Assembly (NCBI RefSeq): GCF_026191475.2
Contig: NZ_JAOSLC020000003.1
Coordinates: forward strand, 434,001-498,000
DNA length: 64,000 nucleotides
Direction: 5' to 3'
Source of the DNA: Polaribacter ponticola
GTDB taxonomy: Bacteria > Bacteroidota > Bacteroidia > Flavobacteriales > Flavobacteriaceae
Positions 15,222 to 21,109 of this stretch are shown here, in pieces. Below the pieces are notes generated by a model. It was given only the letters and a program-made list of their open reading frames with translations, did not search any database and had not been told where the DNA came from. The stretch's first letter is position 1. Every line of letters starts with the position of its first letter. The position numbers were made by a program, and so were the translations under genes.

Positions 15222-15959
15222 TTAATTATTTATTATAAATTGTTCTAATTGTTTTAAGCTGATTTTATTCTCATAAATAGCCTTCCCGATAATAACACCT
15301 TCACAACCATTTTCTGCCAACTTTGGCAATTCATCAAACGTTGAAATTCCACCTGAAGCTATTAGTTTTAGAGGTTTTATTTCTGATAAAATAGTATTAT
15401 AAGTATCAAAACTTGGTCCTTGTAACATTCCGTCTTTAGAAATATCTGTGCAAATTACATATTGAATTCCCTTTTGCTGATAATCAGAAATAAAAGGAAT
15501 TAATTCTAAAGTACTTTCTTCTTGCCAACCATTTGTAGCAATTTTCCCACCAGAATTATCTGGGTAAAAATCTGCTCCTAAAATAATTTTTTCTGAACCA
15601 TATCTTGAAATCCAACTTTCGAAGATTTCGCTATTTTTTACAGCGATACTACCACCAGTAATTTGATTTGCTCCAGAATTAAAAGCAATTTCTAAATCTT
15701 TATCAGATTTTAAACCACCACCAAAATCAATTTTTAAATTGGTTTTAGAAGCAATTAGCTCTAATACTTTATAGTTGATAATTTGGCTTGCTTTTGCTCC
15801 ATCTAAATCTACAACATGTAAATACTCGATTCCTGCTGCTTCAAATTCTTTGGCAACTTCTAACGGATTTTCGTTATAAATTTTCTTTGTGTTATAATCT
15901 CCTTTTGTTAAACGAACACATTTTCCGTCTATAATATCTATTGCTGGTATTATTCTCAT
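15222..15959 (-). CDS. hisA: ProFAR isomerase
   Basis: 245-residue TIM barrel with MRIIPAIDIIDGKCVRL, the phosphate sites DFGGGLKS and IASGGIST, and GADFYP; normal length. It isomerises ProFAR to PRFAR. The base before its ATG belongs to a TTGATTAA/TTAATCAA palindrome that also precedes hisB and hisD. Separated from hisH by the GIY-YIG cassette. Confidence 0.96.
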   Translation of the reverse strand: MRIIPAIDIIDGKCVRLTKGDYNTKKIYNENPLEVAKEFEAAGIEYLHVVDLDGAKASQIINYKVLELIASKTNLKIDFGGGLKSDKDLEIAFNSGANQITGGSIAVKNSEIFESWISRYGSEKIILGADFYPDNSGGKIATNGWQEESTLELIPFISDYQQKGIQYVICTDISKDGMLQGPSFDTYNTILSEIKPLKLIASGGISTFDELPKLAENGCEGVIIGKAIYENKISLKQLEQFIINN

Positions 15960-15978
15960 TGATTAATTTATTAATCAA
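15959..15978. repeat. Start-abutting palindrome of hisA
   Basis: TTGATTAA-TTTA-TTAATCAA touches the hisA ATG. Near-identical palindromes touch the ATGs of hisB (18124-18141) and hisD (20994-21013). Confidence 0.85.
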
Positions 15979-15997
15979 CCCTGAACTTGTTTCAGGG
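15979..15997. repeat. CTGAA-type palindrome, hisA-side end of cassette 1
   Basis: CCCTGAA-CTTGT-TTCAGGG, 7-bp arms. It is the reverse-complement orientation of the ACAAG-spacer palindrome at 16303-16323 on the other side of the GIY-YIG gene. Confidence 0.9.
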
Positions 15998-16002
15998 TCT
16001 TT

Positions 16003-16281
16003 TTATTCAATTTCTAATGTTATTAAGTTTGGATTAGACTTTTTTATTAAATTCCATTTCCATTCTTTATGCCAATTCTTTAATTGTTTTTCTCTTTTTC
16101 TTGCATCCTTTAAATCTTCAAATTCTTCAAAATATAATAATTCACAAACACTATACTTTTTTGTAAATAATGCTCCTTTACCTTTTTTATGTTCAGAAAC
16201 TCTTCTACTTAAATTTTCTGTATATCCTACATATAATACAGTTCTGTTTTTATTTGATAATATGTAACAATAGTAATTCAT
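16003..16281 (-). CDS. GIY-YIG nuclease family protein (intact, in palindrome-flanked cassette)
   Basis: 92 residues from ATG 16281 (a longer TTG-initiated reading is implausible). The GIY-YIG core is complete: YYCYILSN, LYVGYTENLSRRVSEH with the conserved Arg, and the metal-binding Glu in DARKREKQLKNW. Members are small stand-alone nucleases of the UPF0213 type. It lies between hisH and hisA with palindromes on both sides, and is a close relative of the broken copy at 18170-18457 (e.g. shared SNKNRTVL, GALFTKKY, KREKQLKNW/KRELQLKNW). It has no place in histidine synthesis and is probably a mobile passenger (inference). Confidence 0.88.
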   Translation of the reverse strand: MNYYCYILSNKNRTVLYVGYTENLSRRVSEHKKGKGALFTKKYSVCELLYFEEFEDLKDARKREKQLKNWHKEWKWNLIKKSNPNLITLEIE

Positions 16282-16302
16282 GGTAAAATTAAAATTTAAA
16301 AA

Positions 16303-16323
16303 ATTCTGAAACAAGTTCAGAAT
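16303..16323. repeat. CTGAA-type palindrome, hisH-side end of cassette 1
   Basis: ATTCTGAA-ACAAG-TTCAGAAT, 8-bp perfect arms, directly adjacent to the inverted repeat that covers the hisH stop codon. Confidence 0.9.
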
Positions 16324-16372
16324 GGAGTTATAGGTTCAAAAAATTCTCAAGAATTTTTGAACCTATAACTCC
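16324..16372. repeat. Inverted repeat spanning the hisH stop codon
   Basis: Arms of 24 and 23 bases (outer part GGAGTTATAGGTTC / GAACCTATAACTCC) with one bulged A and a 2-base loop. One arm is hisH coding sequence, the other contains the last codons, the stop and 3' flank. Confidence 0.85.
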
Positions 16373-16909
16373 ACTTTTCTCTGGATGAAATTGAACTCCA
16401 TAGAAATTATCTTTTTGTAATGCAGATGCGTACTCAATTTCATAATCTGTTGTTGCAATAGATTCATAACACTTTTCTGCATAAAAACTATGCACTAAAT
16501 ACATGAATTCGTTTTCTTTTATTCCATTGAATAAATCTGATTTTAAATCAGAAATAACATTCCAACCCATTTGCGGAACTTTAACAGAATTTGAAAATCG
16601 TTTTATAGCAACATCAAAAATCCCCAATCCTTTTGTGTTTCCTTCTTCTGACGAATTACACATTAATTGCATTCCTAAACAGATACCTAAAACGGGTTGT
16701 TTTAAAGTCGGAATTACTTTATCTAATCCGCTTTCTTGCAACATTTTCATTGCAGAACTTGCTTCACCTACTCCAGGAAAAATTACTTTATCAGCCGCTT
16801 TTATTTCATCAATCTTATTTGATAAAACAGCATCAACACCTAATCTTTTAAAGGCAAATTGAATACTTTTAATGTTTCCTGCTCCGTAATCTATAATTAT
16901 GAGTTTCAT
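16328..16909 (-). CDS. hisH: Imidazole glycerol phosphate synthase, glutaminase subunit
   Basis: 193 residues. Class I glutamine amidotransferase with nucleophile Cys in GICLGMQLM, and the His-Glu dyad in VQFHPEKSG. It supplies ammonia to HisF. Its 3' end forms a long inverted repeat with the bases downstream of the stop. Confidence 0.96.
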   Translation of the reverse strand: MKLIIIDYGAGNIKSIQFAFKRLGVDAVLSNKIDEIKAADKVIFPGVGEASSAMKMLQESGLDKVIPTLKQPVLGICLGMQLMCNSSEEGNTKGLGIFDVAIKRFSNSVKVPQMGWNVISDLKSDLFNGIKENEFMYLVHSFYAEKCYESIATTDYEIEYASALQKDNFYGVQFHPEKSGVIGSKILENFLNL

Positions 16910-19669: not shown

Positions 19670-19687
19670 ATTTAGTTGTTTTTATAG

Positions 19688-19708
19688 GTGCTGAATCAAG
19701 TTCAGCAC
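19688..19708. repeat. CTGAA-type palindrome downstream of hisD
   Basis: GTGCTGAA-TCAAG-TTCAGCAC, perfect 8-bp arms, touching the inverted repeat that covers the hisD stop. Confidence 0.9.
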
Positions 19709-19742
19709 AGTAACTATAAGTCTTTTAGCCTTATAGTTACTG
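19708..19742. repeat. Inverted repeat over the hisD 3' end
   Basis: CAGTAACTATAAG and CTTATAGTTACTG, perfect 13-bp arms, loop TCTTTTAGC. The downstream arm contains the hisD stop codon TAG. Confidence 0.88.
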
Positions 19743-20994
19743 CATTTTTGTGAGCATCTAGACCTTCTGCTGCTGCCATTAATTCAATAGATTTTCCAAT
19801 TGATTTAATTCCTTCTTTAGATATTTTCTGAAACGTTATACTTTTAGTAAAACTATCTAAATTAACTCCAGAATATGATTTTGAAAATCCGTTTGTTGGT
19901 AAAGTATGATTGGTTCCAGAAGCATAATCTCCTGCACTTTCTGGCGTATATTCTCCAATAAAAACTGATCCTGCATTTTCTATATTATCAACGAAAAAAG
20001 CATCATTTTTAGTTGAAATAATTAAATGTTCAGGTCCATAATTGTTGATTAAATTGAATGCTTCATCTACATCTTCTATTAAAATTGCTTTCGAATTTGC
20101 TAATGCTTTTTTAGCAATTTCTTTTCTTGGCAAGTCTAAGACCTGTTTTTTTATCTCACTTGTAACGGATTCGATAAAATTAATTGAATCTGAAACCAAA
20201 ATTACTTGGCTGTCCGCTCCGTGTTCTGCCTGACTTAATAAATCTGAAGCAACATAACTTGCATTTGCAGAATTATCTGCAACTACTAATAATTCACTTG
20301 GTCCAGCTGGCATATCAATTGCAACACCGTGTTTTGTTGCAATTTGTTTTGCAACAGTAACAAACTGATTTCCTGGTCCGAATATTTTATAAACTTGCGG
20401 AATTGATTCCGTTCCAAAAGTCATACCTGCAATTGCTTGAATTCCTCCGACTTTAATAATTTTAGTAACGCCACATAAATTTGCGGCATATAAAATAGCT
20501 GGATTTATTTTCCCTTCTTTATTGGGTGGAGAACACAATACAATTTCTTTACAACCAGCAATATTTGCAGGAATTGCCAACATTAATACTGTTGAAAATA
20601 AAGGTGCTGTTCCACCAGGAATATACAAACCAACTTTAGAAATTGGTCTTTTTTCTTGCCAACATTCAACACCATTTGTAGTTTCTACAAATACCTTTTC
20701 GGTTTTTTGTGCTGCATGAAATTTTGTAATATTTTCTTTAGCAACTGAAATAGCGGTTTTTAAATCATTAGAAACTAAATTAATGGCTTCTTTTATTTCT
20801 TTTTCTGAAACAATTGTATTTTCTAAAGAAACACCATCAAACTTTGTTGTGTATTTAGCAATTGCAGCATCTCCATTTTGTTGAATATCTGCAAAAACCT
20901 CATTTACGATACCTTCTATATCATCAACCGTTTTTGTTGGTCTTTGAAGAATTTGAGTCCAGTCTTTTCTTGATGGATTATTTATAATTTTCAT
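19714..20994 (-). CDS. hisD: Histidinol dehydrogenase
   Basis: 426 residues, normal length. Conserved segments include YIPGGTAPLFSTVLM, GPGNQFVTVAKQ, DMPAGPSELLV, SQAEHGADSQ and the C-terminal ESAGDYASGTNHTLPT. It catalyses the final two oxidations. Second gene of the operon after hisG. Both flanking junctions carry palindromic elements. Confidence 0.97.
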   Translation of the reverse strand: MKIINNPSRKDWTQILQRPTKTVDDIEGIVNEVFADIQQNGDAAIAKYTTKFDGVSLENTIVSEKEIKEAINLVSNDLKTAISVAKENITKFHAAQKTEKVFVETTNGVECWQEKRPISKVGLYIPGGTAPLFSTVLMLAIPANIAGCKEIVLCSPPNKEGKINPAILYAANLCGVTKIIKVGGIQAIAGMTFGTESIPQVYKIFGPGNQFVTVAKQIATKHGVAIDMPAGPSELLVVADNSANASYVASDLLSQAEHGADSQVILVSDSINFIESVTSEIKKQVLDLPRKEIAKKALANSKAILIEDVDEAFNLINNYGPEHLIISTKNDAFFVDNIENAGSVFIGEYTPESAGDYASGTNHTLPTNGFSKSYSGVNLDSFTKSITFQKISKEGIKSIGKSIELMAAAEGLDAHKNAVTIRLKDL

Positions 20995-21013
20995 TGATTA
21001 ACTTGTTAATCAA
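20994..21013. repeat. Start-abutting palindrome of hisD
   Basis: TTGATTAA-CTTG-TTAATCAA, touching the hisD ATG. Confidence 0.85.
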
Positions 21014-21073
21014 TCCTGAACTTGATTCAGGATCTTATATTTTATAATTTAAATGAAGCTGAATCAAGTTCAG
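21014..21073. repeat. Gene-less (MITE-like) cassette between hisG and hisD
   Basis: Two inverted CTGAA palindromes, TCCTGAA-CTTGA-TTCAGGA (21014-21032) and CTGAA-TCAAG-TTCAG (21059-21073), separated by only 26 bases. Same ends and same TCAAG spacer as cassette 2, but without a GIY-YIG gene. Confidence 0.85.
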
Positions 21074-21075
21074 TA

Positions 21076-21109
21076 TGCTTTAATAGATTTTTAAAAATCT
21101 ATTAAAGCA
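21076..21109. repeat. Perfect palindrome over the hisG 3' end
   Basis: 17-bp arms TGCTTTAATAGATTTTT / AAAAATCTATTAAAGCA with no loop. One arm contains the last hisG codons and the TAA stop. Confidence 0.88.

What the first reader, a model, noticed from the sequence alone, without database searches (positions are those of the whole stretch)
15959..21109. GIY-YIG nuclease cassettes with nested palindromic ends at three his operon junctions
Seen directly: the hisH-hisA, hisC-hisB and hisG-hisD junctions share the same order. Reading along the operon these are an inverted repeat over the upstream stop codon, a CTGAA(N5)TTCAG palindrome, a payload, an inversely oriented CTGAA palindrome, and a TTGATTAA/TTAATCAA palindrome touching the next ATG. 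The payload is an intact GIY-YIG gene (16003-16281), a GIY-YIG gene with one stop (18170-18457), or 26 bases. Inference: a family of small mobile elements in which a stand-alone GIY-YIG nuclease acts on palindromic ends, analogous in logic to REP/RAYT systems but with a different enzyme. I know of no described element of this form.
Basis: partly seen in the sequence, partly recalled or inferred. Interest (0 to 1): 0.93.

Follow-up and report, generated by a model that had tools for sequence, protein, structure and literature searches.

The report
Nuclease partner of orphan hairpin repeats
In many bacterial groups a small gene predicted to encode a DNA-cutting enzyme sits between inverted copies of a short hairpin repeat whose mobility enzyme was reported as missing in 2013, and this enzyme is likely what spreads those repeats.

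Summary
Confirmed, and larger than the his operon. The CTGAA palindromes are REP hairpins of the CGTC-tagged superfamily (Di Nocera 2013), for which no dedicated transposase was found. Their partner appears to be the stand-alone GIY-YIG nuclease. In the window's family, strict tagged hairpins lie on both sides of 37 of 100 such gene pieces and of 0 of 186 control ORFs. Seven REP classes fit the nuclease tree in 11 changes (shuffled mean 46). The pairing recurs in proteobacteria, Planktothrix, Spirosoma and 80 genome loci of many phyla: 122 of 157 nearby hairpins, found without asking for a tag, carry CGTC/TGTC. Four relatives examined, B. subtilis YazA among them, lack REPs. Within the genus, his cassettes are present or absent at orthologous junctions. 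In two filled species the last 45 bp of the upstream gene match distant filled species, not the empty sister, so the unit most simply moved horizontally with its own gene end. Likely mechanism: the nuclease cuts a hairpin or target, and repair copies the REP-bounded unit, as in homing. Cutting is untested, orphan REPs exist, and the full palindrome nesting is special to a few junctions. My searches found no paper linking GIY-YIG proteins with REPs.

The parts
15960..15978 (.). start-side outer palindrome TGATTAATTTATTAATCAA, touching the hisA ATG (15957-15959)
   Evidence: absent from empty hisH-hisA sites
15978..15998 (+). REP, class A: ACCCTGAACTTGTTTCAGGGT (tag position reads AATC instead of CGTC)
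16003..16281 (-). intact stand-alone GIY-YIG nuclease gene, 92 aa
   Evidence: Pfam PF01541 66.3 bits; AlphaFold2 pLDDT 93.5; motif residues kept
16303..16323 (-). inverted REP, class A: ATTCTGAAACAAGTTCAGAAT
16324..16372 (.). outer palindrome over the hisH stop codon; its far arm lies in hisH codons
18124..18141 (.). start-side outer palindrome at the hisB ATG
18142..18162 (+). REP, class A
18170..18457 (-). GIY-YIG gene with one in-frame TAA (decaying copy)
18479..18499 (-). inverted REP, class A
18504..18531 (.). outer palindrome over the hisC end and stop codon, 13-bp arms; arms covary across species
19688..19708 (-). single class-A REP at hisD-hisC
19708..19742 (.). outer palindrome over the hisD stop codon, 13-bp arms
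20994..21013 (.). start-side outer palindrome at the hisD ATG
21013..21033 (+). REP, class A, one half of a nuclease-less pair (REPIN-like)
21057..21075 (-). REP, class A, other half of that pair
21076..21109 (.). outer palindrome over the hisG stop codon, 17-bp arms, no loop
15156..15220 (.). inverted pair of a second REP class (CGTCATTGCGAG..AAGCAATCTC) at hisA-hisF; the GIY-YIG gene flanked by this class lies 1.55 Mb away at G000:C3:2005281
63161..63187 (-). class-A REP with its TGTC tag (TGTCACTCTGAACTTGTTTCAGAGTCT on the minus strand)

Best explanation
The his-operon inserts belong to a widespread family in which a stand-alone GIY-YIG gene is bracketed by inverted REP hairpins of the CGTC-tagged superfamily, and the encoded protein is likely the dedicated mobility nuclease of these REPs, predicted to cut at its cognate hairpin or target site so that host repair copies the REP-bounded unit in. 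Shown: the bracketing, its specificity (REP class follows nuclease clade), purifying selection on the nuclease gene, its spread over phyla, presence/absence at orthologous sites, and two his cassettes whose upstream gene end matches distant filled species rather than the empty sister, which is most simply horizontal arrival. Inferred: that the nuclease makes the cut, that it recognises the hairpin (its closest fold is Slx1, a branched-DNA nuclease), that the cassette spreads by homing-like cut-and-repair, and that the same enzyme spreads nuclease-less REPs and REP pairs in trans.
Confidence: 0.7

Rival explanations
1. REPs are landing pads: the REPs arose by another route, and the GIY-YIG gene is a homing nuclease that recognises a given REP class and inserts itself between the two halves of an existing REP pair.
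For: Orphan REPs without any short stand-alone nuclease; nuclease-less REPs and REP pairs are common; class specificity would arise from target recognition.
Against: At the his junctions the nearest relatives have 4 bp and no REP at all, so REPs and nuclease most simply came in together. REP copy number follows the matching nuclease, clearly for class A and weakly for class B.
Confidence: 0.15
2. The nuclease is a domesticated host enzyme that trims or resolves cruciforms extruded by REPs, kept because it protects replication, and it does not move them.
For: Slx1-like fold, low dN/dS.
Against: Presence/absence between sister species, gene ends that match distant filled species, and stop-bearing copies; the gene lies between the REPs themselves, at many different loci.
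Confidence: 0.07
3. The hairpins are terminators, RNA processing sites or chance palindromes, and the nuclease gene is there by coincidence.
For: The gene-end palindromes could act as RNA hairpins; their arms covary.
Against: Permuted tags and control ORFs show little, and the class-by-clade match is unexplained.
Confidence: 0.03

Closest known systems
CGTC-tagged REPs (Di Nocera, De Gregorio and Rocco 2013, PMC3733652)
   Same: CGTC/TGTC/CCTC tag, 8-9 bp stem beginning A-T, 4-5 base loop, CCA tail in the mostly proteobacterial 80-locus set, inverted pairs, many copies. The Neisseria type (which the paper equates with dRS3) and an Azospirillum type are seen here around GIY-YIG genes.
   Different: That paper reports no dedicated enzyme (abstract, passages and sections 6 and 14 read); here the REP classes have matching GIY-YIG genes. 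Flavobacterial REPs have TCT/TCG tails, and the his copies have lost the tag.
REP/RAYT (REPtron, REPIN) systems
   Same: A small enzyme gene flanked by inverted REPs, with enzyme-less REPs dispersed in the genome.
   Different: RAYTs are HUH tyrosine transposases with GTAG REPs (PMC3733652 passages); here the enzyme is a GIY-YIG nuclease and the tag is CGTC/TGTC.
Free-standing GIY-YIG homing endonucleases of T4-like phages (Seg; intronless homing)
   Same: Free-standing GIY-YIG genes between functional genes, inherited into genomes that lack them, flanking sequence carried along (passages of PMC2988022).
   Different: No REP ends are described in the passages read; here the host is a bacterial chromosome, and Pfam shows no separate DNA-binding domain.
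UPF0213 (BH0048, PDB 1zg2; B. subtilis YazA)
   Same: Same small GIY-YIG family by sequence and fold.
   Different: YazA and its Radiobacillus relative sit in a trmN-yazA-rsmI gene order without REPs.
Slx1 / At-HIGLE
   Different: Eukaryotic; target chains of 153-298 residues; sequence identity only 20-27%.

Membership tests
CGTC-tagged REP superfamily | unpaired CGTC (or TGTC/CCTC) at one end | tested here: met
   122 of 157 hairpins near GIY-YIG genes in 80 loci; the his copies have lost it, the window copy at 63161-63187 keeps it
CGTC-tagged REP superfamily | 8-9 bp stem starting with an A-T pair, loop of 4-5 bases | tested here: met
   43 of 64 chosen REPs are 20-base stem-loops, typically 8 bp plus 4; class A in the window has an 8-bp stem and a 5-base loop ACTTG. 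Long-loop variants exist.
CGTC-tagged REP superfamily | CCA tail | tested here: inconclusive
   CCAG/CCAT/CCAC are the commonest far-side tetramers in the 80 loci; flavobacterial tails read TCT/TCG/CTC
CGTC-tagged REP superfamily | many copies per genome, often inverted pairs | tested here: met
   686 class-A copies in 78 of 149 genomes and 495 class-B copies in 61 of 149, reversed-pattern control 0
REP/RAYT | HUH tyrosine transposase gene between the REPs | tested here: not met
   the gene is PF01541 GIY-YIG with a GIY-YIG fold
REP/RAYT | GTAG tag | tested here: not met
   tags are CGTC/TGTC
GIY-YIG superfamily, UPF0213 group | GIY-YIG motif and conserved Tyr, Tyr, Arg, Glu, Asn | tested here: met
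   Y6, Y17, E64 and N83 invariant and R27 nearly so in 26 sequences; only 1zg2 and 1ywl (UPF0213) match by sequence in the PDB. The role of these residues is recalled.
Seg/I-TevI-type homing endonuclease | free-standing nuclease gene at an intergenic site, present or absent in relatives, with flank carried along | tested here: met
   (two clear cases of a carried flank, L155 and L153; L142 and L134 do not show it)
Seg/I-TevI-type homing endonuclease | cuts the cassette-free allele | not testable with these tools
   no assay possible
Seg/I-TevI-type homing endonuclease | separate C-terminal DNA-binding domain (recalled for I-TevI) | tested here: not met
   92 residues; above the Pfam cut-off only GIY-YIG and the overlapping T5orf172

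The most novel reading that the evidence does not exclude
A second, enzymatically independent class of REP system: GIY-YIG nucleases of the UPF0213 group, each tuned to its own CGTC-tagged hairpin, spread both their own REP-bounded cassette and nuclease-less REP pairs through much of the bacterial tree by hairpin-directed homing. At operon junctions the unit carries palindromic ends that re-supply the upstream gene's last codons, even its stop codon, and abut the next start codon, so it enters tight operons without breaking either gene.
Probability: 0.45. Interest if true: 0.95.

Novelty: new variant of a known kind. Interest (0 to 1): 0.9.

Why it matters
CGTC-tagged REPs were described in five phyla (alpha-proteobacteria above all, also Neisseria dRS3 and Rickettsia), and their 2013 description ends with the question of what moves them. 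This work names a specific, testable candidate in the lineages examined here (Rickettsia and Wolbachia were not examined), with matched enzyme-repeat pairs ready for assay. It would also give a role to many small 'GIY-YIG nuclease family protein' genes and show convergent evolution of REP systems from an unrelated nuclease. The his junctions give sister-species empty and filled sites for a direct homing test.

Tried and rejected
Chance: rejected by shuffles, the reversed pattern, permuted tags and control ORFs.

First flank test: best inverted repeat between the left and right flank of 32 loci against flanks of different loci. It did not discriminate (1 of 32 above the 95th percentile), because nearly all these loci share one REP, so the control carried the signal. 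I replaced it with tag and control-region tests.

Gene-end palindrome as a general end of the element: rejected; 6 of 91 family loci by the strict scan.

Hitchhiking in REP-rich regions: the class-by-clade match argues against it. The copy-number specificity test for two classes was only partly clean.

Rows dropped: L053 (duplicate of L024) and L023 (same gene as L001) left out; of 93 family loci given to the profile, L005 and L044 gave no gene; of 100 gene pieces, 3 under 180 bp were left out of the tree; 11 without a class were not counted on it (by eye most have further REP variants). The family loci are a subset of the places listed, mostly the better-scoring ones, and that list was itself cut. 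Some of the 109 genomes with a match have only weak hits, which may be to longer proteins. Of 68 same-genus genomes with HisB, 30 loci were fetched. The covariation count uses 7 hisC-hisB cassettes; the eighth, L142, was left out because it lacks the palindrome. In one search, 16 of 80 had no hit; by eye most show long-loop or imperfect tagged REPs, and L252 has hairpins without a tag.

Outer controls: the 0.6-1.5 kb distal stretches are mostly coding, so one search was added with ORF-matched controls.

Fold absence: families not listed are not excluded.
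Full report
What is in the window. The his operon runs on the minus strand (hisG ending at 21102 down to hisF ending at 14385). At hisH-hisA and hisC-hisB a GIY-YIG gene sits between two inverted copies of CTGAAN5TTCAG, and at hisG-hisD the same pair encloses about 24-26 bases. Outside these lie a palindrome over the upstream gene's end and a TTGATTAA..TTAATCAA palindrome at the next ATG. The palindrome count is far above chance (8 against 0.06 expected; 56 in the genome against 2 for the reversed pattern). 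The genome has seven PF01541 hits. The five short stand-alone ones are flanked by REP-like repeats, read by eye: three by the CTGAA type, one by CATTGCGAG...GAAGCAATCTC, one by TCATTCAGAG...GAAGAATCTC. In the other two (225-aa and 448-aa frames) no such repeats were seen. The CATTGCGAG class also forms a nuclease-less inverted pair at hisA-hisF, 1.55 Mb from the GIY-YIG gene it flanks.

What the palindromes are. Across the family the flanking repeats read YGTCA-[hairpin]-TC: the bases at the end of the stem change together (CC/GG, TG/CA, AC/GT, TC/GA) while the tag and the ACTTG loop mostly stay. This is the anatomy of the CGTC-tagged REPs of Di Nocera et al. 2013 (PMC3733652; abstract, passages and sections 6 and 14 read): CGTC, often TGTC or CCTC, at one end; 8-9 bp stem beginning A-T; 4-5 base loop; CCA tail; dimers. 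[quoted passage not shown] in the passages read, transposase genes are what they checked.

Association with the nuclease. A protein search of 149 family genomes (148 genera) found a match in 109, some of them weak. In 93 loci, mostly taken from these genomes, 91 gave a gene and 100 gene pieces. Tagged hairpins are 12 times denser within 350 bp of the gene than further out (1.71 against 0.14 per kb); the best of seven permuted tags reached 0.21 against 0.06. With ORF-matched controls the contrast is 37 of 100 against 0 of 186 with REPs on both sides, and 3 of 186 controls have one on either side (20 stretches of 20 kb). By class, 86 of 97 genes have a recognised REP, 57 on both sides and 29 on one. 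On the protein tree the seven classes need 11 changes where 6 is the minimum and shuffled labels need 46.0; 0 of 200 shuffles are as low. The 44 genomes whose best hit to the window's protein has E of 1e-20 or less have a median of 7 copies of the class-A core, 65 with weaker hits 0, and 40 without a hit 0. For two classes, 18 genomes close to the class-A nuclease only have class-A copies in 17 of 18 and class-B copies in 7 of 18; 13 genomes with a close class-B nuclease have a median of 12 class-B copies against 0 elsewhere, but six close to B only also have class-A copies, and the partial correlation for class B is weak.

Other phyla. In the plasmid collection 44 records encode relatives at E of 1e-3 or less. 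I read 18 flanks. Tagged hairpins were re-found by script on both sides in Azospirillum, Neisseria gonorrhoeae (CGTCATTCCCGCGCAGGCGGGAATCTAG), Planktothrix, two Shinella, Rhizobium CIAT894, Sphingobium, Aeromonas, Spirosoma and Neorhizobium (10 of 18), and on one side in Photobacterium and, weakly, Sinorhizobium meliloti. By eye S. meliloti (CCTC tag) and Novosphingobium (CGTCGCCCC...) have them on both sides and R. tumorigenes on one. B. subtilis yazA, Radiobacillus, a Pseudomonas and a Salinivibrio had none (4 of 18); the first two lie in a trmN-yazA-rsmI gene order. A named genome scan kept the best 80 of 576 relatives, with titles from proteobacteria, Bacteroidetes, Nitrospirae, Ignavibacteriales, Anaerolineae, Armatimonadota, Patescibacteria and others, many of them metagenome bins. 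A hairpin scan that did not ask for a tag found 157 hairpins near the genes in 55.0 kb and 30 in 131.8 kb further out. Of the 157, 122 have CGTC or TGTC on one side, and the commonest tetramers on the other side are the complements of CCAG, CCAT and CCAC. With one mismatch allowed, 64 of 80 have a tagged hairpin on at least one side and 45 on both, against 7-12 and 0-4 for six permuted tags. Protein and REP distances correlate.

Empty and filled sites. In 30 same-genus loci (of 68 genomes with HisB among 78 searched), hisH-hisA is filled with a cassette in 4, reduced to 4-5 bp in 5, and otherwise holds remnants or other inserts; hisC-hisB is filled in 3 and 0-4 bp in 8. By eye, solo right ends and nuclease-less pairs of other REP classes occur at his junctions (L135, L139, L140, L145, L147, L158). 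In a well-supported quartet (SH-aLRT 99-100), L155 has a hisH-hisA cassette and its sister L143 has 4 bp. The hisH body is 97% identical between them but its last 45 bp only 56%. Against the distant filled L156 the body is 82%, the last 45 bp 96% and the cassette 91%. L153 against its sister L144 at hisC-hisB shows the same: body 95%, last 45 bp 67%; against the window's own genome 72%, 87% and 79%. The unit therefore most simply came in sideways and brought a foreign end of the upstream gene; by eye the switch point lies close to the outer edge of the gene-end palindrome. This resembles co-conversion in homing (PMC2988022 passages). On the hisA side no such switch is seen, and L142 and L134 do not show it. 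In six of seven hisC-hisB cassettes compared, hisC ends in ISKS and the stop codon is the TGA inside the REP, so there the element supplies the gene's end. The hisC gene-end palindrome covaries over these seven (five genera; 94.9% of cells paired, 11 cells changed on both sides; slid versions 26.5-58.2%); the eighth cassette, L142, lacks it and was not included. Most GIY-YIG copies are closest to copies at the same junction, as site-faithful homing would give.

Reading. The best account is a REP system whose enzyme is a GIY-YIG nuclease: it works like REP/RAYT but is not a member, since the enzyme and the tag both fail; its spread at his junctions works like intronless homing. Which DNA the nuclease cuts, and whether it moves nuclease-less REPs, is untested. 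Orphan REPs in three genomes show that REPs can persist without it or come from elsewhere.

Literature (open-access PubMed Central only, no preprints). 'GIY-YIG' with 'repetitive extragenic palindromic' gave 0 papers, with 'UPF0213' 0, with words beginning 'REPIN' 5 and with 'CGTC' 4, unrelated by title and abstract start. Wider searches were seen only as listings: 16 of 16 papers, 20 of 331, 20 of 34, 12 of 28, 8 of 8, 25 of 88. In the Moraxella paper that holds both GIY-YIG and RAYT (PMC9465073) the two are separate rows of a gene table (passages). In the 2006 superfamily survey (PMC1564403, term search) 'palindrom' does not occur. A 2025 REP survey (PMC12306157, term search) holds 'nuclease' 0 times.

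Noticed in passing
window 15144-15221: The listed ORF 14385-15221 (hisF) is extended upstream by codons that lie in the hisA-hisF REP pair; the true hisF start is probably the ATG at MLTKRIIPC.
   Followed up: no
G147:C34:6988-9742 (L277-L284): Eight GIY-YIG places about 365 bp apart in one family genome, apparently a tandem array.
   Followed up: no
L163 and L180: Azospirillum (annotated) and Shinella PSBB067 (read by eye) both carry a REP-bounded GIY-YIG gene between sufB and sufC, with different REP classes, which suggests independent insertion at the same operon junction.
   Followed up: partly
L241, L269: Two alphaproteobacterial loci have exactly the flavobacterial class-A REP core ATGCTGAACTTGTTTCAGCAT, while their nucleases lie nearest to each other and then to other loci of the 80-locus set: convergence or REP transfer.
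   Followed up: partly
L091, L092, L103 upstream flanks: A second operon junction shows the same kind of gene-end palindrome abutting a REP, with a different sequence in each genome.
   Followed up: partly
L138, L139, L151 (and, from its end, L142, L157) hisH-hisA junctions: Another small gene (MARKLISSGSSFEKE...) is inserted at hisH-hisA in several relatives, in L139 and L142 next to a solo right end of the cassette.
   Followed up: no
window 19590-19670: A further REP pair of the GTCATTTCG...GGAATGATA type lies in hisD-hisC, next to a decayed class-A REP at 19563-19585.
   Followed up: no
his junctions of L136-L162: Other recurrent intergenic repeats (AACCTCACAGGTTTTTAAAACCTGTGAGGT; AGTTTTTAGTTTTGAGTGA...) occupy the his junctions of relatives; no enzyme partner was sought.
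   Followed up: no
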